Assembly (NCBI GenBank): GCA_017616655.1
Contig: JAFZXU010000050.1
Location: 1-49,302, forward strand
Direction: 5' to 3'
Source of the DNA: Bacteroidales bacterium
GTDB lineage: Bacteria; Bacteroidota; Bacteroidia; Bacteroidales; UBA932
Length of the DNA: 49,302 nucleotides
Under the pieces are notes generated by a model that saw only the letters and a program-made list of their open reading frames with translations, was not told the DNA's origin and made no database searches. Position 1 is the stretch's first letter. Each line of letters starts with the position of its first letter. This document shows, piece after piece, positions 15,828-47,946 of this stretch. A program made the translations under genes and the position numbers.

Positions 15828-17075
15828 TTACTGATATAGATAGACTTTGTCGCCTCGGCGGACTTTGTCGGAAAGGGGGATGGATGAGACGTCCCCCTTT
15901 TTCGTCTCCTGAACCGACTGCACGGCGGCCCCTTCGCCGAGGCGGATCTCCGTGACGTCGCATTCCACCACGCCCGTCGTGGCGCCGGAGATGAGCAGGT
16001 GGTCGCCCACCTTGAAAGAGCCCGTTTCGAGAGTTATTTCGGCTACGCCCAGCCGGGCGAAATAATTGGACACCTTGCCCAGAAAGACCTTTGAGCGGGT
16101 GGCTCGGTTGCCGTAAACTTCGCTCCATTCGCCGAGGCGCGCGCCCTGGTAGTAGCCGTCCCAGAAGCCGCGGTTGAAGACAGTTTCAAGGCTCCCCCTG
16201 AGGCCTATGGCCATTTCACGGGTGAAGGTGCCGTCGAGGACGGCGTCTGCGGCGCGGCGGTAAGCCTGCGTCACGGTCTTGACATATTCCCCGCTGCGGG
16301 CACGCCCCTCTATCTTGAAAACGGTCACTCCCGCCTCCGCCATCTTGTCGAGGAACTCGATGGTGCAGAGGTCCTTGGGCGACATTATATATTTGTTGTC
16401 AATCTCCAGCTTCATTCCCGTCTCGAGGTCGGTGACCTCATAGCCGCGGCGGCAGAGCTGGTAGCAGCTGCCCCGGTTTGCGGAGGCGTTGTATTCGTGC
16501 AGGGAGAGGTAGCATTTACCGGAAATGGCCATGCAGAGGGCTCCGTGGCAGAACATCTCTATCTGCACCCGCTTCCCGGAGGGGCCCTTTATGTTTTCTT
16601 CCTCGATGGCGCGCGAAATCTCCGCCACCTGCTTCAGGTTGAGCTCCCGGGCCAGCACTATGACGTCGGCGAACTGCGCATAGAAGCGCAGGCTCTCGAG
16701 GTTCGAGATGCTCAGTTGCGTGGAGATGTGCACTTCCACGCCGATATGCCGGGCATAGGCGATGGCTGCCATGTCGGAGGCTATCACGGCGGTGATTCCT
16801 GCCTCCTTAGCCGCCCGCAGGGCCTCCCTCATCGGCTCGAGGTCCTCGTCGTAGAGCACGATGTTGAGGGTGAGGTAGGAACGGATTCCCGCCTCGCGGC
16901 AGATGCGGCACACCTCAGCCAGGTCCTCCGGCGCGAAGTTGTTGGCGGAATGGGAACGCATGTTGAGGTTCCCGACTCCGAAATAGACGGAATCGGCCCC
17001 TCCCTGAATGGCGGCCCTCAGGCACTCGAAGTTGCCTGCAGGTGCCATTATCTCCAGTTTTCTGCTATCTTTCAC
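15828..17075 (-). CDS. U32-family protein (RlhA/TrhP-like)
   Basis: 415 aa. The TIM-barrel start MAPAGNFECLRAAIQGGADS and the U32 signature FCHGALCMAISGKCYLS followed by ANRGSCYQLCRR are clear; the Cys residues of this region match the iron-sulphur ligands of the family. Members such as RlhA and TrhP hydroxylate rRNA or tRNA cytidine/uridine using prephenate; others are called collagenase-like from early reports. The C-terminal beta domain (about 330-415) is present. Its start overlaps the upstream polyprenyl synthase by 11 bp, so they share a transcript. The RNA-hydroxylation role is family knowledge, the exact substrate cannot be read. Confidence 0.85.
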   Translation of the reverse strand: MKDSRKLEIMAPAGNFECLRAAIQGGADSVYFGVGNLNMRSHSANNFAPEDLAEVCRICREAGIRSYLTLNIVLYDEDLEPMREALRAAKEAGITAVIASDMAAIAYARHIGVEVHISTQLSISNLESLRFYAQFADVIVLARELNLKQVAEISRAIEEENIKGPSGKRVQIEMFCHGALCMAISGKCYLSLHEYNASANRGSCYQLCRRGYEVTDLETGMKLEIDNKYIMSPKDLCTIEFLDKMAEAGVTVFKIEGRARSGEYVKTVTQAYRRAADAVLDGTFTREMAIGLRGSLETVFNRGFWDGYYQGARLGEWSEVYGNRATRSKVFLGKVSNYFARLGVAEITLETGSFKVGDHLLISGATTGVVECDVTEIRLGEGAAVQSVQETKKGDVSSIPLSDKVRRGDKVYLYQ

Positions 17076-18045
17076 GATGTATGAGTGCTTCTGCGAACTC
17101 TTTCATGCACTGGACCTGAGCCTCGTCGAGCCCGCCCTTTTCGAGGGCCTCCACAGCCTTTGCATGGCACTCGAGGATGGCATCTTCGGCCGCCTCCTTC
17201 ACTCCGAGATCGATGTACATTCCGGTGACGGCCTCGATCTTCTCCTGCCTTTTATCCTCTCCGAGGGCCAGAAGGGCTGCAAACTCGGCATAACGGCCGG
17301 CAGCCTTGGCGCGGTGGAGCGCTTCCACCAGCAGCCAGCTCTTCTTGTTGAGGGCGATGTCGCCTCCGATGGGCTTGCCGAAGGTGACTGGGTCTCCGAA
17401 TGTATCGAGGAAGTCGTCGGTAATCTGGAACGCCAGTCCGGTGTTGTATCCGAAGTCGTAGAGGGCCTTGACCTTCTCCTCGTCAGCGCCTGCCAGCAGG
17501 GCTCCCATCGCGGCCGAGCAGGCCAGCAGCACGCCGGTCTTCTGCCCCACCATATCGAGGTATTCGTCCATAGTTACGAAGGGCTGTTCTTCGAAATCCA
17601 TATCCTTGCGCTGCCCCTCGCATACTCCCATAGCCGTGTCCGTAAAGAGTTTGAAGACCTCCTGACGCTTGTCGGCGGGGCAGAGGGCGAGGTACCGGTA
17701 GGCGAGGATCGACATGGCGTCTCCGCTGAGTATGGCGGTATTTTCATCCCACTTGACGTGCACAGTGGGCTGGTTGCGGCGGGTGTCGGAACGGTCCATT
17801 ATGTCGTCGTGTACAAGGGTGAATTCGTGGAAGACCTCGAGGGCAACGGCGGGATAGACTATCTCGTCGGTGACATCATCGCTGAAGAGGCCGAATGCGG
17901 TGAGGCAGAGTTTGGGCCTCAGATGCTTTCCTCCAAGCCCCAGGATATAGCCTATCGGTTCGTACAGAGTCTGGGGTTCGCCCTTGAGATCCAGGGCCAT
18001 CAGCCCCTTGTTCACTATGAAATTTATTTGCTCTGGAGTCAACAT
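17065..18045 (-). CDS. polyprenyl (farnesyl/geranylgeranyl-type) diphosphate synthase
   Basis: 326 aa. GGKHLRPKL (39-47) is the IPP-binding motif; the two aspartate-rich motifs are DDIMD (80-84) and DDFLD (210-214), and GDAMS and GQKTG lie between them. The enzyme adds isopentenyl diphosphate to allylic diphosphates in the cytoplasm. A Phe at position -5 from the first Asp motif suggests a short product (C15-C20), though that rule is only a guide. A -7 box TATCTTTG on the minus strand (complement of 18082-18089) lies about 37 nt upstream of the start. It forms an operon with the U32 gene. Confidence 0.92.
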   Translation of the reverse strand: MLTPEQINFIVNKGLMALDLKGEPQTLYEPIGYILGLGGKHLRPKLCLTAFGLFSDDVTDEIVYPAVALEVFHEFTLVHDDIMDRSDTRRNQPTVHVKWDENTAILSGDAMSILAYRYLALCPADKRQEVFKLFTDTAMGVCEGQRKDMDFEEQPFVTMDEYLDMVGQKTGVLLACSAAMGALLAGADEEKVKALYDFGYNTGLAFQITDDFLDTFGDPVTFGKPIGGDIALNKKSWLLVEALHRAKAAGRYAEFAALLALGEDKRQEKIEAVTGMYIDLGVKEAAEDAILECHAKAVEALEKGGLDEAQVQCMKEFAEALIHRER

Positions 18046-18115: not shown

Positions 18116-20275
18116 ATGAAGACCGGGAAACGCTCACAAATCCGCCGTCTGCTGCTATTTCTTCCTGTAGCCGCAGCGGTGGTCTCGTGCGATCTCCAGG
18201 TTTTTGAGAATCCCGTTTCCCCGGAGGGCTTTATGGCATATGCCGAGGAGCATTCCGCAGCGGATACCAGAACCTCGCTGGACAAGGCGGGTGCGGTTCT
18301 CTGGACCAAAGGAGACGTTATCAGAGTCTATAAGGCTTCGGCCATAACGGCCGGTTATCATGGCCACGACTTCACAATCGATCCTTCCTGCGACGGCAAG
18401 GAAAGGGGCATATTCAGCGAAGAGGGTTATGATGATTATTACACGGAACCCTGCTACGCCGTATTTCCGCCCTCCGTGGCGGTCGGAATGGACGGGCAGA
18501 TGCTTTCCGTCAGCCTTCCCCGGGTACAGAAGGGAATGGAGAACAGTTTCGGCCGCAGCGCCAGCCCCGCGGTAAGCAACTCCCCCGGCAACGGAATGCT
18601 GCCCTTCTCCAACCTGTGCGGCCTTGTGGCGATAAGGGTGACGGGGGCGGCGCCGATTTCGGAGATCAAGATAACCACCGCGGCGGACGAAGCCCTCTGG
18701 GGTACCGGCAAGGTGGATATGAATTACAAATCCAGGCCTTTCCTGATAATGGACAAGATTACCTCGGAAGATCAGAAGAGCCTGATACTCGAAATAGAGG
18801 ACCCTGATTCCCCTGACGGGCAGTTTATCTCCTCCGGCGCCTCTTCTTCAGCTTCGGGCGGCGTCCTGACCGGAGATGCGGAGCGCGAAAGGGTCTATTA
18901 TATGGCAATTCCGGCCGGAACCCTTTCGCAGGGATTTACCGTCACGGTGGTCACTTCCGACAAGAAGTACATGCAGAAATATGCCGTTCCTTCGGAATCG
19001 AACCGCATCGAGCGTTCCGTCTGCACGGTGATGCCGGATGTCCGCTTCGAGGATGAATCGAAAGTGAAGATCCGGACCGACGTGCTGAACAAGGCCTTCT
19101 ACAAGGACCTCTTCATGGATTCCGGCGCAGGTATCGGAAAATTCAGGACTCAGCCCTTCATCAACTATATGGGCCTTGAATACGAGTATTTCTTCGCACC
19201 CAGGGAGAACTTCACCGCGGCCGACCTCGCCAAGCAGAAGCTTGCCTTCGCCGGTTCGCCCGAAGACCTGAACGGTGTTCTGCTCTATCCTGACGGCGAA
19301 CCGAGGTTCAGGATGATCTACGTCAACGGCGGATACTCCACCGAGCACGGCCGCAATCTCTTCGCAGAGGCCCGTGAGAATTTCAACAAGTTCTTCTACA
19401 ACGGAGGAAGCTACTGCGGCTCCTGTGCGGGAGCTATGGTCTCCGCCAGGGGCTCCGTAGGCAACGCCTTTACCTCTACGGCAGGATATCTCGGTTTCTG
19501 GCCCGGATTCCACAACAGCCTCAGCATCACCGATATCTATCCTACCTACATCCTTCCCGACGACAGCCCCGTGCTGCGCTACTATGATTTCGGAGGCGAC
19601 CATAAGGTGGAGGAAATAAAGCACTGGAACGGCCCTTACTTCAAATTCTGGGAAGACGCCCCCGGAACGGAGGTGCTCTGCGTCAACGACCTTTCCGGCT
19701 ATGATTTCGACGGATACCCTTCTGTGATCGCCTACAAGCCTTCAATCTGGTCGGGGCGCGTGATTCCGGTAGGAGGCCATCCCGAGCAGTCCGAAGAGAA
19801 GGAGCAGCTCGACCTGATGGCGTCGTTCGTCAAGTATTGCTTCGACGGCCAGGGCATCGCCAAAGCCAAGGGAGTGCTCCGTAACGGAGAGGTCAGGCTG
19901 ATGACCAAATCGACGGAAGAGAACGATCCCGATTTCACGAAAGTGGGCGACAGGCAGTGTCACCATTTCGTCTTCGCCCTTCCCGAGGGGGCCCGCAACA
20001 TCAGGGTGCGGCTCGAGTCCCTGGAAGGGTTCAACCTCAGCCTGAGGCTCGCAGAGGGCACATTCGCATTCAAGGAGGATGCAAAATATTCCCTTGAGAA
20101 CGGCGACAAGGTGAAGGAGCTCTCCTTCGACAAACTCCCCGCCGGAACCTGGTATGTGGGAGTCCAGTGCGAGGATGCTCCTGAAGTCTCCTTCGGCGAC
20201 TACGGATATATCTACAGCGGCAACACCGCGGTGCTTAACGGCGCGCCTTATTCAATCAGCGTAAAATGGGAGTAA
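18116..20275 (+). CDS. lipoprotein with fimbrillin-like, GATase1-like and PPC-like domains (copy 1)
   Basis: 719 aa. SpII signal with lipobox VVSC (Cys25). Residues about 48-310 have the fimbrillin-like pattern (TRTSLDKAGAVLWTKGDVIR) seen in the neighbouring lipoproteins. From about 320 a class-I glutamine-amidotransferase-like domain follows: MIYVNGGYSTEHG, then the nucleophile elbow FYNGGSYCGSCAGAM with Cys437, and PVGGHPEQ with His555 and Glu557. Cys, His and Glu thus match the GATase1/BPL_N triad. The last 110 residues (CHHFVFALPEGARNIRVRLE ... LPAGTWYVGVQC) resemble a pre-peptidase C-terminal (PPC) beta domain. A lipid-anchored enzyme of this kind is exported, so the substrate is outside the cytoplasm; perhaps amide or peptide bonds. 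The 22348 gene is a full-length paralogue. Confidence 0.75.
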   Translation: MKTGKRSQIRRLLLFLPVAAAVVSCDLQVFENPVSPEGFMAYAEEHSAADTRTSLDKAGAVLWTKGDVIRVYKASAITAGYHGHDFTIDPSCDGKERGIFSEEGYDDYYTEPCYAVFPPSVAVGMDGQMLSVSLPRVQKGMENSFGRSASPAVSNSPGNGMLPFSNLCGLVAIRVTGAAPISEIKITTAADEALWGTGKVDMNYKSRPFLIMDKITSEDQKSLILEIEDPDSPDGQFISSGASSSASGGVLTGDAERERVYYMAIPAGTLSQGFTVTVVTSDKKYMQKYAVPSESNRIERSVCTVMPDVRFEDESKVKIRTDVLNKAFYKDLFMDSGAGIGKFRTQPFINYMGLEYEYFFAPRENFTAADLAKQKLAFAGSPEDLNGVLLYPDGEPRFRMIYVNGGYSTEHGRNLFAEARENFNKFFYNGGSYCGSCAGAMVSARGSVGNAFTSTAGYLGFWPGFHNSLSITDIYPTYILPDDSPVLRYYDFGGDHKVEEIKHWNGPYFKFWEDAPGTEVLCVNDLSGYDFDGYPSVIAYKPSIWSGRVIPVGGHPEQSEEKEQLDLMASFVKYCFDGQGIAKAKGVLRNGEVRLMTKSTEENDPDFTKVGDRQCHHFVFALPEGARNIRVRLESLEGFNLSLRLAEGTFAFKEDAKYSLENGDKVKELSFDKLPAGTWYVGVQCEDAPEVSFGDYGYIYSGNTAVLNGAPYSISVKWE

Positions 20276-20280
20276 CGGCT

Positions 20281-22179
20281 ATGAAAAAGAGATTATTGTT
20301 CTTTGCTGCGGCTGCCCTTGCCGTCCTCTCCTGCACGGTTGAAGAGCGTGTGGACCGCGATACTATCATTGCTGAAATAGAGAATCTGTCAACCCGTACC
20401 GCTCTCGAGGCGACGGAAGGCGGATATATTATAAACTGGATTGCGGGAGACCGCATCACAGTCACCGACGGAGTCTCCGAAGCGGTTTACGAGGCCGCTA
20501 CCGGCGGTTCCTCCTCATCCGAATTCAACAAGGTGTCGGGTTCCGTGAGCGGAAACAGCCTGAGAGGTTACTACCCCGCCGAACTCATCTCCGGAGTCCT
20601 GCCTTCCGTCCAGAAGTGGTATCCCGCCAGGGAGGTCAGGATTCCCATGGCCACCGATGAGGTATCCGACATAAAGCTTCTGAAGTTCAAGCCTATATGC
20701 GGCGTGCTTCATTTTACTGTTGTCTCCAGTATCAAAACCCTAAAAATCAGGGAGATACGCGTATCTGCCGACCAGCCGATGAGCGGTCCTTTCGTTATCT
20801 CGGACGGCGTTGCGGCCCTTTCCGGCACCGCCGGGGTCAGCCTCGACTGCGGTGAAGATGGTGTGGTAGTAGGGTTGGAAGAGACGCCTTTCTGCGTTTC
20901 GGTTCCCGCCGATACCTACACCGGATTGAAAATCACCCTGGTGGATGTGAACGGCAAGGTGGCCGAGGTCAAGCTTCAGGAAAACGCGGTCTTCACCGTC
21001 CGCAGGGCGGAGGCGCGCCGGATAGAGATCGAGGCCAATACCTTCTCGGATCCTGCCGGTTCGGGAGAGGCGACCCTGATGTACGGTCCCGATTTCAACG
21101 AACTCATCAAGAATCTGGCTAATCCCGGCTGCATGGCCATAGACAACGACTCCACCATCACCCATATCGTCTTCAGGACAGGCGTCTCCGAGGAGGGGCA
21201 GGTGCTGGTGAGCGACTATCGCAGCGACAATCCGGTATGGGCTTCGTTTGATTCCAAGACGGGTACCGTAACCATCACCTCGCCGGCTGCAGTGCTCTAT
21301 GCGAACGCTCAGGCGTCGCATATGTTCCGCGGTTTCTGCCTGGTCAGGGAGATCGAGAACATGAAGGTGATCAATACTTCCAGGGCCCAGAACCTCTCCT
21401 ACTTCTTCCACCGCTGCTTCAACCTCAAGTCGGTGGACCTCAGCAATTTCGATACATCGAACTGCGACAGCTTCGGCTTTATGTTCAGCTACTGCCAGTC
21501 GCTTGAATCGCTGGATGTATCGCATTTCAATACTGCGAAGGCCATCACCATGGCCAATATGTTCCAGCACTGCGAGAAGGTGGAGACGATAGACGTTTCC
21601 GGCTTCAAGACCGACAATGTCCGTTCGCTGGACAACACCTTCAGCGACTGCTGGGCCCTCAAAACCCTCGACCTCTCGGGTTGGAACACCGACCAGGTGA
21701 CCGATACCCGCAGCCTTTTCAACCGCTGCAAGTCCATCAAGGAACTCGACATCCGCAAGATGTCCTTCCCCAACACGACCAGGATGACCTATATGTTCTA
21801 CCAGATGGAGAGCCTCGAGACCCTGCATTTCGAGGGGATGGACTTCTCGCGGTGGAAAGCCGGAACGGGAACGGCACTTGTCTACATGTTCCAGCGCATC
21901 CCGAACCTGAAAGACCTTTATCTGGGAGATAACGGCGTGAGCCCCGACGGCATCACCCCTTCGCCCTTCTTTACCTCCAACAGCGACGCCAACGGCGTGC
22001 GCACCGCATCCAAGAGCGGCAAGCTCACCATACACTGCCACAGGGATGCCGTCAACTGGCTGGCGAAGGGCAACCTGCGCTGGATCCACAGCGGCTACAA
22101 GAACCAGACTCCGATAGATGTCATATTTCTGGACTACAAGACAGGAGAAGCATATACCCCGACATGGGCAGCAGACTGA
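20281..22179 (+). CDS. BspA-type leucine-rich-repeat surface lipoprotein (copy 1)
   Basis: 632 aa from the ATG at 20281 (MKKRLLFFAAAALAVLSC, Cys18); the in-frame ATG at 20266 would overlap the upstream gene and spoil the signal. Residues about 30-250 are a fimbrillin-like domain (LSTRTALEATEGGYIINWIA). Residues about 340-540 are BspA/DUF285-type repeats of about 22-24 residues (LKSVDLSNFDTSNCDSFGFM, then LESLDVSHFNTAKAITMANM). The C-terminus DYKTGEAYTPTW recurs in the two paralogues. BspA-like proteins bind host or partner-cell ligands. It follows the GATase-like gene by five bases, and this order is repeated at 22348-26409. Confidence 0.8.
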   Translation: MKKRLLFFAAAALAVLSCTVEERVDRDTIIAEIENLSTRTALEATEGGYIINWIAGDRITVTDGVSEAVYEAATGGSSSSEFNKVSGSVSGNSLRGYYPAELISGVLPSVQKWYPAREVRIPMATDEVSDIKLLKFKPICGVLHFTVVSSIKTLKIREIRVSADQPMSGPFVISDGVAALSGTAGVSLDCGEDGVVVGLEETPFCVSVPADTYTGLKITLVDVNGKVAEVKLQENAVFTVRRAEARRIEIEANTFSDPAGSGEATLMYGPDFNELIKNLANPGCMAIDNDSTITHIVFRTGVSEEGQVLVSDYRSDNPVWASFDSKTGTVTITSPAAVLYANAQASHMFRGFCLVREIENMKVINTSRAQNLSYFFHRCFNLKSVDLSNFDTSNCDSFGFMFSYCQSLESLDVSHFNTAKAITMANMFQHCEKVETIDVSGFKTDNVRSLDNTFSDCWALKTLDLSGWNTDQVTDTRSLFNRCKSIKELDIRKMSFPNTTRMTYMFYQMESLETLHFEGMDFSRWKAGTGTALVYMFQRIPNLKDLYLGDNGVSPDGITPSPFFTSNSDANGVRTASKSGKLTIHCHRDAVNWLAKGNLRWIHSGYKNQTPIDVIFLDYKTGEAYTPTWAAD

Positions 22180-22192
22180 TAATTATCCAATT

Positions 22193-22345
22193 ATGAAAGC
22201 ACAATACATCGTTCCCGTCACCGAGTGCGTTTCCACTGAGGCGCAGTCGATTTTCGCCGCTTCCGGCAACAATGAGGATTTCGGCAGCAAGCCCGGAACC
22301 TACGACCTTCTTAAACCCGGCGGTCTCTTCCAAGAAAAGTTCTGA
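22193..22345 (+). CDS. 50-aa small peptide of the MK-Y-P-E...ASGNxDFG type
   Basis: The ATG at 22193 follows the BspA stop by 13 nt; the stop codon precedes the next lipoprotein ATG by two bases. MKAQYIVPVTECVSTEAQSI then FAASGNNEDFG, and a Gly/Pro/Lys-rich end. No signal peptide. Residues 1-30 align without gaps over most of their length to the N-terminus of the 27382 protein (MKTTYINPKIEVSDIESKKV then FCASGNEDFG). The context, directly before a surface-lipoprotein gene, is the same in both. Possibly a regulatory or coupling leader peptide, possibly a peptide product; not known. Confidence 0.75.
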   Translation: MKAQYIVPVTECVSTEAQSIFAASGNNEDFGSKPGTYDLLKPGGLFQEKF

Positions 22346-22347
22346 TC

Positions 22348-24498
22348 ATGAAATCATTACGACTCTTTTTCCTGATTCCCGCGATACTTCTCTGCGCTGC
22401 CTCCTGCCAGATCGGCGAGGTATGGCCGGGTGATTCCGGGGATGGCTTCACGGCTTCCCTCGAATCGCAGAGCGGAGCCAGCAGGACCACGCTCTCCGGT
22501 TCTTCGGTTCTCTGGACCGAAGGTGATACCATCGTGGTTTACAAGAGCGCTTCCACTGCGGATTCGCACCTTTTCGCACTCGATCCTGCCGACGACGGCA
22601 AGGCGAAAGGACACTTCAGCGAAGCTGGATATGAGGAGTATTACAACTCTTCATGCTATGCTTTCTATCCCGCCTCCATGGCGGGAAGCGTATCCGGTTC
22701 CATCCTTACCGTGAACCTCCCGCCGGTACAGTATTACAGGGAAGGCTCCTTCGACAGGAACGCCAATCCCGCCGTCGCTCTCTCCGACGGCAATGGCACG
22801 CTGGCTTTCAAGAACCTCTGCGGTCTGATTTCCGTGGCGGTAAACACCTCCGAGGCCATCTCCGAAGTGAAGATCACTACTGCTGCCGAAGAGGCTCTCT
22901 GGGGCACCGGAACCGTGGATATGAACTTTACTTCGAAGCCTGAACTGGTTATGGACAAGAGTGTCACCGAGGCGCAGAAGAGCCTGGTGCTCAAGGTTTA
23001 CAAGGCGGGCGACGACGGCCAGTTCGTCACAGTCGGCCCCGGTTCGACGGTGACTGACGGCACTCTGGGCGGCGATACCACTCCCACGCAAACCTTCTTC
23101 TTCGTGGTCCCTGCCGGCACCCTCGCCCAGGGATTCACCGTGACGACGACCACCACTACCGGCAAGTTCATGCAGAAATATGCCGTCGCCAAGGCGGCCA
23201 ATGCCATAGAGCGCTCCGTCTGCACCGTGATGCCGGGCATCGATTTCGAGGACGAGTCCGAAGTGGAAATACGTACCGACGTACCCAACAAGGCCTTCTA
23301 CAAGGACCTTTTTGCAGATGCCGGCACCAATCTTTCCAAGTACAAGACGATGCCGATAGTTTCGTATCTCAACCTGTCGTATGAGTACTTCTACACCGAC
23401 AGCTATACCAATTCATATAACGAGACCGAAGAACTGGAACAGGCCAAAGTCTTCATAGGCAGCGACGAGGATCTCAACGGGGTGCTTCTCTATCCCGACG
23501 GAGAGCCCCGCTTCAGGGCGCTTTATGAGAACGGCGGCTACTCTACAACCCACGGCCGCGCCCTCTGGGCCGGAGGCCGCCAGAATATCCGCAAGTTCTT
23601 CTATAACGGAGGCAGTTATGTCGGCTCATGCGCGGGCGCATTCTTCTCATCCCGGGGGGTCATCGACAATGACTATTCTTCTACGAACGGTTATCTGGGT
23701 CTCTGGCCGGGATATGTCAACGATACCAATATTTACGACATTTACCCCGACTATATAATTCCGGACGACAGTCCATTGTTGAAATATTACGACTTCGGCG
23801 GAGACCATCGCGTAGCCCAGGTGAAGCATTGGAACGGCCCCTACTTCGCGGAGTACGCCATGGTGCCGGGTACCGAGGTGCTCTGCATCAACGACTATCC
23901 CGCATACAAATATCATATGCTGCCCTCTGTCATCGCTTACAAGCCCTCAATCTGGTCCGGACGCGTTATTCCTTCCGGAGGTCACCCGGAGCAGTATCCC
24001 GACGGAGAGCGCCGCGACCTGATGGCTTCCTACATCAAGTATGCGTTCGACGGAGTCGGCATTGCAAAAGCCAAGGGAGTGCTCCACAACGGCGAGGTGC
24101 GCCGGATGACCAAGTCCACCACGGACGATGACCCCGCATACACCAAGGTGGGCGACAAACAGTGCCACCACTTCGTCTTCGCCCTTCCCGAAGGGGCGCG
24201 CAACATCTGCGTGAGAATGGAATCCCTCGAGAATTTCAACATCAGCCTGCACCTTGCAGAAGGCACCTTCGCCTTCAAGGAGGATGCCCAATACAAGGTG
24301 GAGAATACCGACAAGGTCAAGGAACTCAAGTTCGACACCCTGCCTTCAGGTACCTGGTATGTGGGCGTGCAGTGCGAGGATACCCCCACCTGCACCCTCG
24401 GGGACTACGGCGGCGGCAAATACAGCGGCTATCAGTACAGTGGCAATGTCGCGGTGCTGAACGGCGCGCCTTACACAATCAGCGTAACCTGGGAATAA
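22348..24498 (+). CDS. lipoprotein with fimbrillin-like, GATase1-like and PPC-like domains (copy 2)
   Basis: 716 aa, a paralogue of the 18116 gene with the same domain order. SpII signal with lipobox AASC (Cys20), fimbrillin-like region (SRTTLSGSSVLWTEGDTIVV), GATase1-like core with FYNGGSYVGSCAGAF (Cys428) and IPSGGHPEQY (His546, Glu548), and the PPC-like tail (QCHHFVFALPEGARNI ... GTWYVGVQCEDTP). The residues around the triad are the best-conserved part between the copies, while the N-terminal domain has drifted, which suggests selection for catalysis. The gene begins two bases after the 50-aa peptide gene and is followed 15 bases later by a BspA-type gene. Confidence 0.75.
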   Translation: MKSLRLFFLIPAILLCAASCQIGEVWPGDSGDGFTASLESQSGASRTTLSGSSVLWTEGDTIVVYKSASTADSHLFALDPADDGKAKGHFSEAGYEEYYNSSCYAFYPASMAGSVSGSILTVNLPPVQYYREGSFDRNANPAVALSDGNGTLAFKNLCGLISVAVNTSEAISEVKITTAAEEALWGTGTVDMNFTSKPELVMDKSVTEAQKSLVLKVYKAGDDGQFVTVGPGSTVTDGTLGGDTTPTQTFFFVVPAGTLAQGFTVTTTTTTGKFMQKYAVAKAANAIERSVCTVMPGIDFEDESEVEIRTDVPNKAFYKDLFADAGTNLSKYKTMPIVSYLNLSYEYFYTDSYTNSYNETEELEQAKVFIGSDEDLNGVLLYPDGEPRFRALYENGGYSTTHGRALWAGGRQNIRKFFYNGGSYVGSCAGAFFSSRGVIDNDYSSTNGYLGLWPGYVNDTNIYDIYPDYIIPDDSPLLKYYDFGGDHRVAQVKHWNGPYFAEYAMVPGTEVLCINDYPAYKYHMLPSVIAYKPSIWSGRVIPSGGHPEQYPDGERRDLMASYIKYAFDGVGIAKAKGVLHNGEVRRMTKSTTDDDPAYTKVGDKQCHHFVFALPEGARNICVRMESLENFNISLHLAEGTFAFKEDAQYKVENTDKVKELKFDTLPSGTWYVGVQCEDTPTCTLGDYGGGKYSGYQYSGNVAVLNGAPYTISVTWE

Positions 24499-24513
24499 AT
24501 GGAGGAGAGAGCT

Positions 24514-26409
24514 ATGAAAAAGATACTGTTTTCACTCGTTGCCATAGCGCTGTTTGCAGCCGCTTCCTGCACCGTGGATGAAATGGTGCAGGACAACGAA
24601 ACCATCATCGCTTCCATCGAGGCCGTATCTACGCGTACCGCTCTCGCGGATGCGGGAGACCACTATGACGTAAATTGGGTGGCCGGCGACCAGATAACCG
24701 TCGACAACGGCACCAAAACGGCTATTTACCAGACCACGACCGGCGGTTCGACCACAGGCGAGTTCCATAAGATTACCTGGGGCGCCTTCACGGGAGACTC
24801 CTTTACCGGCTACTATCCTTCCGAGATCGCGAACGGATACCTGCCGTTCACCCAGACCTATGCGGCCGGCAACGTATTCAAGGTCCCCATGGTTTCCGAC
24901 CCCGCGGTGGACTTGACAAACCTGAGGTTCAAACCCGTTACCGGCATCCTGAAACTCAGCATTACCACGGGAATCAAGACATTGAAGATCAAGAGTATAA
25001 GGGTTTCTGCCGATCAGGGTTTGAGCGGTTCGTTCACCCTTGTCGACGGCGCCGCCATAGTAGCTGACGACCGTGCCGGAGTACTTCTCGACTGCGGCGA
25101 CGGCGTAGAGATCGGAGGCACGGCGACACCGTTCTACATCGCGGTTCCCGCCAATCTATATACCGGAATCAGGATAACCCTCTACAACACCGAGGGCAGG
25201 GCCTGCGTGGTCAAGCTCCAGGACAACACTTCATATTCAGTCAGGAATGCCGAGCTCCGCGAAATCAAGATTGCGGCCAACTCCTTCTCCGCTCCAGACA
25301 ATGGCGGAGAGGCCCTTCTATGCTATGGTACGGCATTCAACGAAGCCTTGAAGCAGCTGGTGGTCCCCCGTAAGCGTTCCCATGTCGAGGATTCCGTTGT
25401 CACGAAGATCGTATTCAAGACTAACGACTATACCGCGGGCACCGTCAAGGTGAGCAACTTCGATTCGGAGTTTCCCATCTATGCGAGCCTGGAGGGTACC
25501 GTGGTGACGGTCACCACTCCTGCCTCGTCCATCCGTACTGCAGAGAATGCCTGCCACATGTTCGCCGGATTCACCCTTGTCGAAGAGATAGAGAACATCA
25601 ACGTGCTGAACACCTCCGCGACGCAGGATTTCTCATATATGTTCAGCCACTGCACGAAACTCAAGAGCGTCGACCTGAGCCGTTTTGAGACCTCCGCCTC
25701 GATGACCTTCGCCTATATGTTCTCCTACTGCCAGAGCCTGAAGGTGATAGACGTCTCGAAGTTCGACACCTCCAACGCCCTCTCGCTCGGCTTTATGTTC
25801 TACCACTGCGAATCGGCTGAAACCCTGCCCGTAGGCAATTTCAATACGGCCAAGTCGAACAATTTCGACAATGTCTTCTCCGACTGCTGGGCGGTCAAGT
25901 CCCTCGACCTCTCGAAGTGGAACACCGACAGGGGAAGGGAGACCCGCAGCATGTTCAACCGCTGCCGTGCCCTGAAGGAGCTCGACCTGAGCCATATGTC
26001 GTTTGCCAGCGCGGAGCTGCAGACCTATATGTTCTACCAGATGTCGAGCCTCGAGGTGCTGCATCTCGAGAGCATGGACTGCTCGCGCTGGACCGATATG
26101 GCCAACAAGATCCATATGTTCCGCCAGATTCCCAACCTCAAGGATCTCTACCTCGGGGAGAAGGGATACAATACCGACAGTTTCAAGCCCTCGTACTTCT
26201 TCTCGGCTACCGACGACAAAGCCGGCGCGCGTACCTCTTCGCTGAGCGGTTCGCTGACGATCCACTGCACGCAGAAGGGTGCCGACTGGCTCTCCAAGAC
26301 CAACCTGCGCTGGATAAACAGCGGTTACAGCGGAATGGCTCCGGTACCTGTCAAATTCGTGGACTACAAGACGGGAGCAGAACTTACAGTCACCTGGCCT
26401 GCTAATTAA
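24514..26409 (+). CDS. BspA-type leucine-rich-repeat surface lipoprotein (copy 2)
   Basis: 631 aa from the ATG at 24514 (MKKILFSLVAIALFAAASC, Cys19); a GGAGGAG stretch lies about 8 bases upstream, while the in-frame ATG at 24499 directly after the previous stop gives a poorer signal. Fimbrillin-like domain about 30-255 (VSTRTALADAGDHYDVNWVA), BspA/DUF285 repeats about 345-540 (LKSVDLSRFETSASMTFAYM, LKVIDVSKFDTSNALSLGFM), and the shared end VDYKTGAELTVTWPAN. It is a close paralogue of the 20281 protein. rsgA starts three bases after its stop. Confidence 0.8.
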   Translation: MKKILFSLVAIALFAAASCTVDEMVQDNETIIASIEAVSTRTALADAGDHYDVNWVAGDQITVDNGTKTAIYQTTTGGSTTGEFHKITWGAFTGDSFTGYYPSEIANGYLPFTQTYAAGNVFKVPMVSDPAVDLTNLRFKPVTGILKLSITTGIKTLKIKSIRVSADQGLSGSFTLVDGAAIVADDRAGVLLDCGDGVEIGGTATPFYIAVPANLYTGIRITLYNTEGRACVVKLQDNTSYSVRNAELREIKIAANSFSAPDNGGEALLCYGTAFNEALKQLVVPRKRSHVEDSVVTKIVFKTNDYTAGTVKVSNFDSEFPIYASLEGTVVTVTTPASSIRTAENACHMFAGFTLVEEIENINVLNTSATQDFSYMFSHCTKLKSVDLSRFETSASMTFAYMFSYCQSLKVIDVSKFDTSNALSLGFMFYHCESAETLPVGNFNTAKSNNFDNVFSDCWAVKSLDLSKWNTDRGRETRSMFNRCRALKELDLSHMSFASAELQTYMFYQMSSLEVLHLESMDCSRWTDMANKIHMFRQIPNLKDLYLGEKGYNTDSFKPSYFFSATDDKAGARTSSLSGSLTIHCTQKGADWLSKTNLRWINSGYSGMAPVPVKFVDYKTGAELTVTWPAN

Positions 26410-26412
26410 AGT

Positions 26413-27357
26413 ATGTTGAAAAAGGGCGTCGCAACAGTAGTCAAGCATACCGGAAGCCATTACCTGCTCTCCGAACTGCCGCAGTGGAATCTCTTTCCCG
26501 CGGTGATAAGGGGGCGGATAAGGCTGAAGGGCTCCTCCTCCACCAACCCTGTGGCGGTGGGGGATGTGGTAGACTACTCCATAGATGAAGATGCGGAGGA
26601 GCCGATGGGAACCATCGAGAAAATCCACCCCCGCCGCAACTACATCATCCGCCGCAGCGCCAACCTCTCCCGCGAATCGCACATCATCGCCGCCAACCTC
26701 GACAGGGTCTTCCTGATTGTCACGATGGCCTTCCCGGAGGTCAAGAGGGCCTTCGTGGACCGATTCCTGGTCACCTGCGAGGCCTACCGCATCAAGACCA
26801 CCATCCTGATAAACAAGACCGACCTAATCTCCGATTTCCTTGAGGACGAGATGCGTGAGTTCGAAGGGGTTTACCGCGGCGCGGGTTACGAAGTCATAGA
26901 GGTATCGGCCCGCACCGGGGAGAACGTGGATCTGGTTAGGGAGATGTGCAGGGATTCGGTTTCCCTCTTCTCCGGTGTTTCCGGAGTGGGCAAATCGACC
27001 CTCATCAAGGCGATAGACCCCACCCTTACGGGTATCAAGACCGGCGAGATCTCCCTTTCCCACCTGCAGGGCAAGCATACCACCACCTTCTACGAGATGC
27101 ATCCGCTCTCCGGCGGAGGGTTTATGATAGACACCCCCGGTATCCGCGGCTTCGGCCTGGTGGATATGGAAAAGGAGGAGCTGAGCACCTATTTCCCCGA
27201 GATGTTCAGGGTTATGGACAATTGCCGCTACAAGCCCTGCACCCATACCCACGAACCCGGATGCGCCGTCAAGGCGGCGGTGGAATCGGGCGAAATCGCC
27301 GCCCAGCGCTACGAATCCTACCTCGGAATGCTGGAGGAGGAGAACAAATACAGATGA
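26413..27357 (+). CDS. rsgA: small ribosomal subunit biogenesis GTPase RsgA
   Basis: 314 aa. N-terminal OB fold, then a circularly permuted GTPase: G4 NKTD (about 137-140) comes before G1 GVSGVGKST (about 191-199) and G3 DTPG (about 241-244). The C-terminal zinc finger is CRYKPCTHTHEPGC. RsgA helps late maturation of the 30S subunit. It begins three bases after a surface lipoprotein stop codon and is followed after 24 bases by another surface lipoprotein, so a housekeeping gene is locked inside the surface-protein transcription unit. Confidence 0.95.
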   Translation: MLKKGVATVVKHTGSHYLLSELPQWNLFPAVIRGRIRLKGSSSTNPVAVGDVVDYSIDEDAEEPMGTIEKIHPRRNYIIRRSANLSRESHIIAANLDRVFLIVTMAFPEVKRAFVDRFLVTCEAYRIKTTILINKTDLISDFLEDEMREFEGVYRGAGYEVIEVSARTGENVDLVREMCRDSVSLFSGVSGVGKSTLIKAIDPTLTGIKTGEISLSHLQGKHTTTFYEMHPLSGGGFMIDTPGIRGFGLVDMEKEELSTYFPEMFRVMDNCRYKPCTHTHEPGCAVKAAVESGEIAAQRYESYLGMLEEENKYR

Positions 27358-27381: not shown

Positions 27382-29610
27382 ATGAAAACCACTTACATCA
27401 ATCCGAAAATCGAAGTTTCGGACATTGAAAGCAAGAAAGTCTTCTGCGCTTCGGGCAATGAGGATTTCGGAAAGGGTTCCGATTACGGAATGGGCATTTT
27501 TGAAATGGCTTCGCCGGCCAAATGGTTCTCGATAGCCTTTCTGGCCATGCTGCTGCTCGGCTCCTGCAGCCTCGACAATCTGGTTCCGAAAGAGTCCAAG
27601 ACCTACAGGGGAACCATCGAACCGTGCGAAACCCGTACCTATGTCACCGCCGACGGTGACGTGCTGCATGTCAACTGGCGGAGCGGCGATCAGATCGCCA
27701 TCACCGACGGTACCGACACCGCCGTCTACGCTGCCGAATATGGCGGATCCAATACAACCTCTTTCTCCAAGGTGAGCGGAACCGATCCTACCGGCGTGCC
27801 GACGGCATATTACCCCGCGACCATTGCGGCCGGAACTCTGCCTGCCGTCCAGAAGTATGCAGCCAACAACATCAAGGAGTCCCCGATGGTAGGAACCATC
27901 GTCGACGATGATATCGCCTTCAAGAATCTCTGCGGCCTGGCAATATTCAAGATATCGACAACTATGAGCGAAGTCAATGTCAAGAGTATTACCGTCACTG
28001 CCGACAAGGGACTCAGCGGTGCCTTCACCGTGGTCGACAATGCTGCAGTCGTCTCCGGCTCTGCCGGCGTCACCCTGGCATGCGACGAGCCGGTGGCTAT
28101 CGGAGATGTGTCCACCAACTTCCATATGGCCATTCCTGCGGGTGAATACTCCACTTTCGAGGTGAAGGTCTCCACCTGGGACGGCAGGAGCCAGACCCTC
28201 AAGGCAAAATCCGCCATAAAGATAGAACGCTCCAAGTACAGCAACATCTCATTGGAGTGCAACAACTTCGTTGAAGAGAAGGCCGGGGTGGCCCTGCTTC
28301 CTTCGGGCCCTGATTTCGCAACCGCCCTCAAGATGCTGAACAACCCTTCGGCAGACGCCAATACGGTGGATGACTTCATCAAAAAGATCGTCTTCCAGAC
28401 CGGAAGCAGCCTGATTGCAGGCACCGACATAGCCGATCTCTCCTCGGAGGAAAAGGCGTATCTGATATGGGATGCCGGTACCGGAACCGTAACCGTCAGC
28501 ACCAGGGGAACCGGATTCGTGCTGCCTGAGAATGCCTCCAGGATGTTCGGTGATTTCGCGGTCCTTGAATCCATCGAGAACATCGCCGCCCTCAATACGG
28601 AGAACGTCACCGACATGAGCTATATGTTCACCGGCGTCTCCTGCGATACCACTGCCCTTACCTCCCTCGACCTCTCGACCTTCAAGACCGGGAATGTCAC
28701 TACGATGGAGAGGATGTTCGCGCACAGCTGCGCCCTCACCTCCCTCAATGTGACCGGATGGGACACCGGGAATGTGGAGAGCATGAAATATATGTTCAGC
28801 AGGGTCACCGTGCTTGAGAACCTGGATCTTTCCAACTGGGACAACAAATCCTGCGAGGACTTCACCTATATGTTCGATCATGCGGTTTCGCTCAGGACTC
28901 TCAATCTGGCGAACTTCAATACGGAGATGGCTTCCTCGATAGCCTATATGTTCTATTTCTGCGAGAGCCTTGAAAGCCTTGACGTCTCTTCGTTCGATAC
29001 CGAGAATGTGACGAACATGGATAATGTGTTCAGGAGCTGCTATAAACTCCAATCCCTTACCGGCCTCAAGAATTTCGACACCAGCAACTGCACCTATTTC
29101 CGCAGCATGTTCAACCGTTGCGACTCGCTGACGGAACTTGACTGTTCGTCGTTCGACGTCTCGTCTTCGACCAACTGCCAGTACATGTTCTACAAGTGTA
29201 TGAGCCTGCAGAAACTCAATGTCTCATCGTTCGACATAAGCGGCATGAAGGCCAGCACCGTTGCTTACAGCATGCCCAAGCTGCAGTCCATCCGGGAGAT
29301 AAACTTCGGCGACAGCTTCATTCCTGCCAACGTTCCTTCGGTTCCCGACGGCTTCACGATGTATTATGCCGACCTCGAGGACGAGAGCATGGCCTGCCAG
29401 AACCCTACCAGGACGGTTACCGTATACTGCTCTTCGGATGTGGCCAACTATCTGGTCACCACCGATATGCATTATCCTCACAACGGATGGCACTATATCT
29501 ACAATGGTATCGACCGCATCCACCAGCCGATTACCATCAACCTCGTCGACTGGAAGACCAACCAGCCCATCAATCTGGTATGGCCGGCTAACGAAAAATA
29601 TCCGTTGTAA
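27382..29610 (+). CDS. BspA-type lipoprotein with in-frame small-peptide N-terminus (copy 3)
   Basis: 742 aa from the ATG at 27382. Residues 1-41 are a member of the small-peptide family (MKTTYINPKIEVSDIESKKV, FCASGNEDFG). Then an ordinary lipoprotein begins in the same frame: M42, signal segment to LLLGSC (Cys62). The ATG at 27505 would give a normal SpII lipoprotein of 701 aa. Either the two are one polypeptide with a buried signal, or translation restarts at 27505. A fimbrillin-like domain (CETRTYVTADGDVLHVNW) is followed by BspA repeats (about 410-610, LTSLDLSTFKTGNVTTMERM). The end (VDWKTNQPINLVWPAN) is shared with copies 1 and 2, but no GATase-like partner accompanies this copy. Confidence 0.75.
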   Translation: MKTTYINPKIEVSDIESKKVFCASGNEDFGKGSDYGMGIFEMASPAKWFSIAFLAMLLLGSCSLDNLVPKESKTYRGTIEPCETRTYVTADGDVLHVNWRSGDQIAITDGTDTAVYAAEYGGSNTTSFSKVSGTDPTGVPTAYYPATIAAGTLPAVQKYAANNIKESPMVGTIVDDDIAFKNLCGLAIFKISTTMSEVNVKSITVTADKGLSGAFTVVDNAAVVSGSAGVTLACDEPVAIGDVSTNFHMAIPAGEYSTFEVKVSTWDGRSQTLKAKSAIKIERSKYSNISLECNNFVEEKAGVALLPSGPDFATALKMLNNPSADANTVDDFIKKIVFQTGSSLIAGTDIADLSSEEKAYLIWDAGTGTVTVSTRGTGFVLPENASRMFGDFAVLESIENIAALNTENVTDMSYMFTGVSCDTTALTSLDLSTFKTGNVTTMERMFAHSCALTSLNVTGWDTGNVESMKYMFSRVTVLENLDLSNWDNKSCEDFTYMFDHAVSLRTLNLANFNTEMASSIAYMFYFCESLESLDVSSFDTENVTNMDNVFRSCYKLQSLTGLKNFDTSNCTYFRSMFNRCDSLTELDCSSFDVSSSTNCQYMFYKCMSLQKLNVSSFDISGMKASTVAYSMPKLQSIREINFGDSFIPANVPSVPDGFTMYYADLEDESMACQNPTRTVTVYCSSDVANYLVTTDMHYPHNGWHYIYNGIDRIHQPITINLVDWKTNQPINLVWPANEKYPL

Positions 29611-47872: not shown

Positions 47873-47946
47873 GGTCCCATAGCTCAGTTGGTTAGAGCAT
47901 CTGACTCATAATCAGGGGGTCGCAGGATCATGCCCTGCTGGGACCA
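47873..47946 (+). tRNA. tRNA-Met (CAT anticodon), unusual T-loop
   Basis: 74-nt cloverleaf: acceptor GGTCCCA/TGGGACC, D-arm GCTC/GAGC, anticodon stem TCTGA/TCAGG with loop CTCATAA, T-stem GCAGG/CCTGC, discriminator A. The CAT anticodon means elongator Met, or Ile2 if lysidine-modified; I cannot separate them. The T-loop is ATCATGC instead of TTCRAnn, so T54 and A58 are both replaced. CCA is not encoded. It is 31 nt after rpsJ and may be co-transcribed. Confidence 0.85.

What the first reader, a model, noticed from the sequence alone, without database searches (positions are those of the whole stretch)
18116..26409. Tandem two-gene module: GATase1-like lipoprotein plus BspA-type LRR lipoprotein
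The pair 18116/20281 is repeated as 22348/24514 with the same order, spacing and domain make-up. The first gene joins a fimbrillin-like N-terminus, a Cys/His/Glu amidotransferase-like core (GSCAG and GGHPEQ in both copies) and a PPC-like tail. I do not know of a described lipid-anchored surface system with this architecture. Conservation of the triad while the N-terminus drifts suggests an exported enzyme whose activity matters, with the BspA protein as its partner or target-recognising adhesin.
Basis: partly seen in the sequence, partly recalled or inferred. Interest (0 to 1): 0.8.

Follow-up and report, generated by a model that had tools for sequence, protein, structure and literature searches.

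The report
Surface amidase paired with repeat protein
A gut bacterium carries two copies of a gene pair in which a lipid-anchored protein that looks like an amide-cutting enzyme is coupled to a leucine-rich repeat surface protein; the pairing recurs in related species and sometimes as one fused protein, which points to a surface enzyme with its own target-binding partner.

Summary
Two head-to-tail pairs (18116/20281, 22348/24514) each encode a lipoprotein with a class I amidotransferase-like (BPL_N-type) core and a PPC-like tail, then a DUF285/PARCEL leucine-rich lipoprotein.

The genome has 17 core genes. In seven related genomes the window's lineage has 32: 24 with a DUF285-type lipoprotein gene directly 3' on the same strand (one seen only by its N-terminal domain at a contig end), 7 one-gene fusions (5 clear, 2 eroded), 1 with neither. 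A 3 kb count gave 24 of 32, 1.6 expected. A clade of six has the reverse order.

Some relatives outside this lineage lie beside SusC/SusD transporters and peptide or amide hydrolases.

Best reading: a surface amidohydrolase with an LRR binding subunit, in trans or fused, expanded to 5-35 genes per genome. Catalysis, substrate and physical interaction are inferred. Ten searches of a partial paper library showed no such pairing.

The parts
18116..20275 (+). GATase1-like lipoprotein, copy 1 (719 aa): lipobox Cys25, N-terminal domain ~41-317, amidotransferase-like core ~319-600, PPC-like tail ~601-719
19424..19426 (+). putative catalytic Cys437 in GSCAG
   Evidence: 103 of 104 aligned cores; 62 of 62 in the smaller set
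19778..19786 (+). putative catalytic His555 and Glu557 (HPE)
   Evidence: His 103 of 104, Glu 104 of 104
19946..19966 (+). G-D-x-Q-x-H-H motif at the start of the PPC-like tail
   Evidence: G611, D612, Q614, H616 in 104 of 104, H617 in 97 of 104
20281..22179 (+). DUF285/PARCEL leucine-rich lipoprotein, partner of copy 1 (open frame from 20266): N-terminal domain, linker domain, LRR
22193..22345 (+). small ORF of 50 aa ending 2 bases before copy 2; possible leader peptide gene of the second pair
   Evidence: no NCBIfam match, no Pfam match at E up to 5
22348..24498 (+). GATase1-like lipoprotein, copy 2 (716 aa), triad Cys428, His546, Glu548
24514..26409 (+). DUF285/PARCEL leucine-rich lipoprotein, partner of copy 2 (open frame from 24499)
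27382..29610 (+). third DUF285 lipoprotein, after the RsgA-type gene; related to the partners but without an adjacent GATase-like gene; same arrangement in genome G013

Best explanation
Each pair is a two-subunit, lipid-anchored surface enzyme system. The first protein is an exported amidohydrolase with a class I glutamine amidotransferase-type core and a Cys-His-Glu triad. Exported and without a visible synthase partner, it most likely hydrolyses amide bonds (gamma-glutamyl, glutaminyl or similar) in extracellular peptides or peptide-bearing polymers. The second protein is a DUF285 leucine-rich repeat lipoprotein that binds the target or holds the enzyme at it. In some relatives the LRR is fused to the enzyme's C-terminus and does the same job in cis, much as a binding module does on a secreted hydrolase. 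Shown by computation: export signals, conserved triad, homology to BPL_N proteins, tight same-strand pairing, fusions, purifying selection. Inferred: catalysis, substrate class, surface exposure and physical interaction.
For: Core homology: the 104-sequence core profile matches 13 Bacteroidales BPL_N lipoproteins (probability 98.8, E 9.4e-17), Cys on Cys and HPE on HPE; those match 13 proteins found with the SNO model (96.7, 3.7e-10), again with Cys and HPE aligned; six column-shuffled controls against the core gave E 0.07-0.62. Triad intact in 103 of 104. Pairing: 24 of 32 genes of the window's lineage had a DUF285 match within 3 kb, all 24 on the same strand and 3' (1.6 expected); domain scanning resolves the 32 as 24 adjacent (one at a contig end), 7 fused, 1 alone. 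A separate clade of six has the LRR gene 5'. Gaps: 18 of 23 3' pairs lie between -9 and 16 bases, 6 of 6 5' pairs between 0 and 19. Fusions as one clade are rejected (AU p 6.3e-8; p 4.0e-4 with the nested L097 added). Core and LRR distances correlate (23 pairs, r 0.79, p 1e-4; 11 representatives, r 0.34, p 0.03) and the nearest neighbour agrees in 16 of 23. Substrate lead: some relatives lie in SusC-SusD-AAT-FGase-core-M14 (L182), AAT-like-SusC-SusD-core-core (L082), core-core-C69 (L083-L085) and SusC-SusD-core-core-beta-lactamase-like x2 (L061, L121) arrangements. Two non-Bacteroidales relatives match the Por secretion tail, L087 over the Pfam cut-off, L088 below it.
Against: No structure model and no assay. 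A direct comparison of the core with the SNO-model proteins was not significant (probability 4.7, E 0.0086). Copy 1 falls below Pfam's BPL_N cut-off (15.0 against 24.2), and both window copies fall below PPC's. None of the 32 genes of the window's lineage lies within 4 kb of a listed SusD gene, so the transporter and peptidase context belongs to relatives, not to this lineage. 46 of the 76 DUF285 ORFs entered have no enzyme within 3 kb. The genes are related by descent, so 24 of 32 is not 24 independent events. All LRR-linked genes may form one clade (AU p 0.55), so the pairing may have arisen once. Two of the 7 fusions (L060, L073) keep only the partner's linker domain and the start of the LRR; of the other five only one passes Pfam's DUF285 cut-off and one TIGR02167's.
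Confidence: 0.5

Rival explanations
1. The enzyme works alone and the LRR lipoprotein is an independent surface adhesin or antigen. The two are neighbours because surface protein genes with a shared N-terminal domain duplicate together.
For: The N-terminal domain alone matches further places in the genome. 46 of 76 entered DUF285 ORFs have no enzyme within 3 kb, and 64 of the 70 core genes outside the window's lineage have no listed DUF285 match within 3 kb (capped list). Vertical inheritance of one ancestral pairing is not excluded.
Against: Fixed order, strand and short gaps, a second arrangement with reversed order, and fusions that do not form one clade.
Confidence: 0.25
2. The LRR lipoprotein is the enzyme's substrate or regulator: the enzyme deamidates or processes its partner, or is held inactive by it.
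For: One-to-one pairing, lipoboxes on most members of both groups (31 of 33 LRR and 30 of 37 N-terminal-domain enzyme rows by a regular expression) and correlated divergence would fit this as well.
Against: Most core genes in the seven genomes (64 of the 70 outside the lineage) and the relatives in other phyla have no LRR gene seen nearby. Fusion gives no obvious advantage to a substrate.
Confidence: 0.12
3. The core has lost or changed chemistry and acts as a binding or structural domain of a pilus-like or capsule-related surface assembly.
For: An N-terminal domain with a weak match to a solved protein (3ufi); relatives in loci with a polysaccharide flippase (L178) and GDP-mannose dehydratase (L179); one naturally triad-less copy in genome G031 (L103).
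Against: Triad intact in 103 of 104 cores, and the core under the lowest dN/dS of the domains compared with G013.
Confidence: 0.1

Closest known systems
Biotin-protein ligase N-terminal domain family (Pfam PF09825, BPL_N), including ~380 aa Bacteroidales lipoproteins
   Same: Homologous core with the nucleophile elbow G-x-C-A-G and the H-P-E motif; 25 of 27 members of the window family match at E up to 0.01; profile match 9.4e-17
   Different: The window family has further conserved core blocks, an invariant G-D-x-Q-x-H tail motif, a PPC-like domain, and in the window's lineage an extra N-terminal domain and an LRR partner; copy 1 scores below the Pfam cut-off
Class I glutamine amidotransferases (PdxT/SNO; HisH is my recalled name for most proteins found with the SNO model)
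   Same: Cys and HPE motifs aligned, reached through BPL_N
   Different: Exported, no synthase subunit recognised nearby, direct profile match not significant
DUF285 / TIGR02167 PARCEL repeat surface proteins (Roske et al. 2010, PMC2996958; passages and section 5 read)
   Same: Tandem repeats of this family on surface lipoproteins, patchy distribution, abundance in some small genomes
   Different: Roske et al. report that only nine of 406 ORFs were assigned to COGs, and 'amidotransferase' does not occur in the main text; here the repeat protein is paired with or fused to an enzyme-like protein
BspA-type LRR lipoproteins (Pfam LRR_5)
   Same: LRR surface lipoprotein; LRR_5 over its cut-off in 24499
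   Different: 20266 has no LRR_5 match at E up to 1; the DUF285 model scores highest in both
SusC/SusD-type uptake loci of Bacteroidota
   Same: Some relatives of the enzyme lie in such loci with peptidases; 12 of 83 core genes outside the lineage lie within 4 kb of a listed SusD gene, 4.2 expected
   Different: 0 of 32 genes of the window's lineage do

Membership tests
Pfam BPL_N (PF09825) | Score over the curated cut-off of 24.2 bits, copy 2 (22348) | tested here: met
   24.3 bits
Pfam BPL_N (PF09825) | Score over the curated cut-off, copy 1 (18116) | tested here: not met
   15.0 bits; related to copy 2 at 60% identity
Class I glutamine amidotransferase-like fold | Cys nucleophile elbow plus His-x-Glu triad | tested here: met
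   103 of 104 cores keep Cys and His, 104 of 104 Glu; the exception is L103 4859-7378
Class I glutamine amidotransferase-like fold | Alpha/beta fold with the triad assembled in space | not testable with these tools
Class I glutamine amidotransferase-like fold | Synthase or acceptor subunit | not tested
   Neighbouring genes were looked at only in part; none was recognised as a synthase
DUF285 / PARCEL | Model match over cut-off | tested here: met
   DUF285 120.6 and 70.9 bits against 25; TIGR02167 119.2 and 102.7 against 30
DUF285 / PARCEL | Dyad symmetry of the repeat DNA | not tested
   Only a tandem-repeat scan was run, with no array found
BspA LRR_5 (PF13306) | Score over 27.7 bits | tested here: inconclusive
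   28.7 bits for 24499; no match at E up to 1 for 20266
PPC (PF04151) | Score over 25.9 bits | tested here: not met
   22.8 and 19.4 bits in the window; relatives L086 1424, L088 and L087 reach 31.6, 32.9 and 36.0
Fimbrillin | Pfam fimbrillin model match of the N-terminal domain | tested here: not met
   No fimbrillin model among matches of 30 N-terminal domains at E up to 0.1; weak profile match to 3ufi, E 6.5e-4
SusC/SusD uptake locus | SusD gene adjacent | tested here: not met

The most novel reading that the evidence does not exclude
The pairs are an expanded arsenal of LRR-targeted surface amidases: a common catalytic lipoprotein is combined with faster-diverging LRR subunits, each pair directed at a different extracellular peptide-bearing target (other microbes' walls, host or dietary glycoproteins), so that one lineage of gut Bacteroidales has turned a single-copy peptide-scavenging enzyme into a diversified targeting system of up to 35 enzyme genes per genome.
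Probability: 0.25. Interest if true: 0.85.

Novelty: new variant of a known kind. Interest (0 to 1): 0.62.

Why it matters
DUF285/PARCEL repeat proteins are widespread on microbial surfaces but little is known of their role (PMC2996958, passages). An enzyme-like protein that is repeatedly paired with, or fused to, such repeats gives a direct handle: the repeat can be tested as the targeting part of a measurable reaction. It also opens an uncharacterised exported amidotransferase-type family that takes up an unusual share of some gut Bacteroidales genomes (35 genes in a 1.9 Mb assembly).

Tried and rejected
I then used profile-profile comparison; one search read some loci on the wrong strand and one search replaced it. 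The shuffled controls were run against the core only, not for the BPL_N-to-SNO step.

A search of the PDB with copy 1 or with one relative gave nothing. With the family profile the best hit was PdxT at E 0.07, not significant alone.

Plasmid and phage collections held no relative, so a mobile-element origin is not supported. In 395 genomes of the phylum only the own genome had a strong match; two others were marginal (E 2.8e-4 and 7e-4). One search found relatives in 59 of 299 genomes of the family, in 6 of 25 genera.

I first thought that the enzyme-LRR link had arisen at least twice, because the six reverse-order genes sit apart in the tree, and a first AU test seemed to agree (p 5.5e-5). 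That test had left out L097, which lies inside the lineage; with it included, one clade is not rejected (p 0.55). I dropped that claim. The test on fusions had the same flaw; with L097 added they are still rejected as one clade (p 4.0e-4, against 6.3e-8). These groups were named after the tree was seen, which the test does not allow for. Fission of an ancestral fusion is as possible as repeated fusion.

Rows dropped before counts: one search dropped cores under 330 residues, among them the gene of G013 contig 18, which lies in two frames and was left so, cores without the tail, and identical sequences. One search skipped three duplicate loci. Searches skipped duplicates and also L090, L091 and L093, which are not exact duplicates. 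The DUF285 and SusD listings were cut at 150 rows and copied by hand, so counts are lower bounds for those genes. In one search the fused gene of G022 contig 57 counts as having a neighbour and the broken gene of G013 contig 18 as none; one search corrects both, so 24 stands by either count with one member exchanged. One 35-bit fragment (G019 contig 116) was left out of the gene counts.

Choice of genomes: three of the eight few-copy genomes (G003, G023, G029) had already shown a SusD neighbour when I chose them. Without these three the count is 3 of 7 genes instead of 6 of 13. The family seeds came from loci seen first, so that call is a description and not a test.

No tandem repeat array and no Rfam element other than a tRNA were found. 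Paper searches: not all aimed at the pairing; of the papers listed only PMC2996958 was opened (passages and section 5), the rest were seen as listings with abstract openings.
Full report
WHAT IS THERE. The window (contig 20 of a 2.09 Mb, 73-contig assembly) holds two head-to-tail pairs on the + strand: 18116-20275 with 20281-22179, and 22348-24498 with 24514-26409. They lie between a divergent polyprenyl synthetase-type gene (17065-18045) and an RsgA-type GTPase gene (26413-27357); these two names are my reading of the sequences, from no call. A third DUF285 lipoprotein follows at 27382. The same order is kept in genome G013, and in G022 an enzyme gene also sits beside the polyprenyl synthetase-type gene. 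All four pair proteins start with a lipobox-type signal.

THE ENZYME-LIKE PROTEIN. Domain scanning gives lipobox, N-terminal domain (~41-317), core (~319-600) and PPC-like tail (~601-719). Pfam is weak for copy 1 (BPL_N 15.0 bits, PPC 22.8) and reaches the BPL_N cut-off for copy 2 (24.3 against 24.2). Of 27 family members 25 match BPL_N and 16 match PPC at E up to 0.01. Profile comparison gave a two-step chain: core to 13 Bacteroidales BPL_N lipoproteins (probability 98.8, E 9.4e-17), these to 13 proteins found with the SNO model (two PdxT-like, the rest by my recall HisH-like; 96.7, 3.7e-10), with Cys and HPE aligned in both steps; the direct step was not significant (4.7, E 0.0086); six column-shuffled controls against the core gave E 0.07-0.62. 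In 104 aligned cores Cys437 and His555 are kept in 103 and Glu557 in 104; the exception, L103 4859-7378 of genome G031, lacks both Cys and His and lies next to a copy that keeps them. The tail motif G611, D612, Q614, H616 is kept in 104 of 104, so I read the PPC-like tail as a working part of the enzyme and not an add-on.

SELECTION. Against the orthologues in G013, dN/dS is 0.089 and 0.080 in the two cores, 0.156 and 0.116 in their N-terminal domains, 0.130 and 0.133 in the tails, and 0.154 and 0.157 in the LRR parts of the two partners (partner N-terminal domains 0.232 and 0.131). Around Cys437 it is 0.055 over 23 codons, and around HPE there is no amino acid change in 26 codons. Between the two copies of the window the core is 0.150 and the N-terminal domain 0.337. 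dS by domain runs from 0.75 to 2.2, partly saturated, so the ratios are rough. Over 23 pairs mean pairwise identity is 0.56 for the core, 0.66 for the tail, 0.37 and 0.44 for the N-terminal domains of enzyme and partner, and 0.41 for the LRR. The enzyme part is kept; the display and repeat parts change faster.

DISTRIBUTION. The genome holds 17 core genes; seven genomes of the same genus hold 5 to 35 (102 in all, from the matches). In the genus 32 of 40 genomes have a match, 25 of these with one to three. DUF285 was found in 9 of 40: the seven expanded genomes (7-45 domain matches each) and two others with 1 and 2. This correlation is confounded by descent. In the family 59 of 299 genomes, 6 of 25 genera, have the core; in the phylum 3 of 395, two of them marginal. 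Named records include goat and sheep rumen and horse faeces Bacteroidales, rumen MAGs labelled Prevotella, and single loci in Neomarinimicrobiota, Fibrobacterota, WOR-3 and Akkermansiaceae MAGs. By equal contig lengths three of the seven expanded genomes can be tied to such records: G013 to goat rumen, G016 to sheep rumen, G022 to horse faeces; the source of the other four, the window's own among them, is unknown to me.

THE PAIRING. In the seven genomes the window's lineage (at least 430 bits to the query) has 32 genes. By a 3 kb count 24 have a DUF285 match, all 24 on the same strand and 3', 1.6 expected for uniform placement; of the other 70 core genes 6 have one, all 6 on the 5' side. Domain scanning of the loci gives 24 adjacent pairs (in one, at a contig end, only the partner's N-terminal domain is seen), 7 fusions signal-core-PPC-LRR and one gene with neither (L097). 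Five fusions carry a clear LRR (72-153 bits with my profile); L060 and L073 carry the partner's linker domain and only the start of the LRR. Pfam's DUF285 cut-off is passed by one fusion (L099), TIGR02167's by one (L096 8906-11002); the rest are below or without a match. L099 holds a fused gene and a closely related unfused pair on one short contig. In the tree the lineage has support 100 and the fused state needs at least four gains or losses. Fusions as one clade are rejected (p 6.3e-8; p 4.0e-4 with the nested L097 added); all LRR-linked genes as one clade are not (p 0.55). Gaps between the genes are -9 to 16 bases in 18 of 23 3' pairs; the five larger overlaps come, I think, from choosing the longest open frame. 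Core and LRR distance matrices correlate (23 pairs, r 0.79, p 1e-4; 11 representatives, r 0.34, p 0.03), as expected if pairs travel together.

THE SUBSTRATE LEAD. L182: SusC, SusD, AAT-type, N-formylglutamate amidohydrolase-type, core and M14 carboxypeptidase genes, all on one strand. L082: AAT-like (by similarity only; no Pfam match), SusC, SusD, core, core. L083-L085: core, core, C69 peptidase. L061 and L121: SusC, SusD, core, core, two class C beta-lactamase-type genes. L124: M14 and AAT genes on the opposite strand on either side of two cores. The Pfam names were checked on one to four examples each, the others by similarity. Of 74 loci, by my count, 19 of 48 outside the window's lineage had one of these families within 6 kb of a core, and 2 of 26 in it, both over 5 kb away; the seeds came from loci seen first, so this is not a test. 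In 8 few-copy genomes 6 of 13 genes lie within 4 kb of a listed SusD gene, 0.7 expected; four of the six are convergent with it, and three of the eight genomes were chosen after their SusD neighbour had been seen (3 of 7 without these). For all 83 genes outside the lineage it is 12, 4.2 expected; for the lineage 0 of 32. This favours an amide or peptide hydrolase in nutrient scavenging as the ancestral role. Relatives in other genera of the family lie beside polysaccharide genes (L178, L179), so a role in surface polysaccharide biology is also open.

HOW IT MOST LIKELY WORKS. Shown: export signals, conserved triad, homology to BPL_N, tight pairing, fusion. Inferred: the core hydrolyses an amide bond outside the cell, the LRR partner binds the target or docks the enzyme, and expansion reflects many targets. 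I put this at 0.5. The largest doubts are the missing fold and activity, and that 46 of 76 entered DUF285 ORFs occur without the enzyme.

NOVELTY. Each domain but the N-terminal one is known to databases. The combination, as a repeated two-gene module and as a fusion, was not found in ten searches of a partial paper library, not all aimed at it. The one paper opened on DUF285/PARCEL, read in passages and one section, does not contain the word amidotransferase in its main text and says that little is known of the ORFs that carry the repeat. I file it as a new variant of a known kind: an exported enzyme with a surface binding partner.

Noticed in passing
window 22193-22345 and 27382-27549: A conserved small ORF of about 50 aa (M..Y..P..E...ASG.NEDFG.K.GTYD..KP...F) was found by a pattern upstream of 7 of 38 enzyme rows with an N-terminal domain and 4 of 33 LRR rows, 0 of 58 short and 0 of 7 fused; at 27382 it is in frame with the LRR lipoprotein, in G013 it is a separate ORF. 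A DNA pattern for it hit three places in 11 genomes, all three just before or at the start of core genes by their coordinates. No NCBIfam match; Pfam gave one chance-level match.
   Followed up: partly
L103 4859-7378 and 7210-9921 (genome G031): A natural copy of the core that lacks both Cys and His of the triad lies beside one that keeps them.
   Followed up: no
L074 5937-12540 and L075 4635-12882 (genome G022): Tandem arrays of five short and four N-terminal-domain core genes, without LRR partners in the fetched stretch.
   Followed up: no
L091 (Oscillospiraceae-labelled MAG contig): Its core gene is very close to Bacteroidales copies (end branches 0.03-0.05), so the contig is probably mis-binned.
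   Followed up: no
L087 4529-6076, L088 620-2095: Relatives in Neomarinimicrobiota and Fibrobacterota MAGs match a Por secretion tail (over the Pfam cut-off in L087, below it in L088), which would fit extracellular action of the family.
   Followed up: partly
window 47873-47946: A tRNA gene, the only Rfam match over its gathering score in the window.
   Followed up: no
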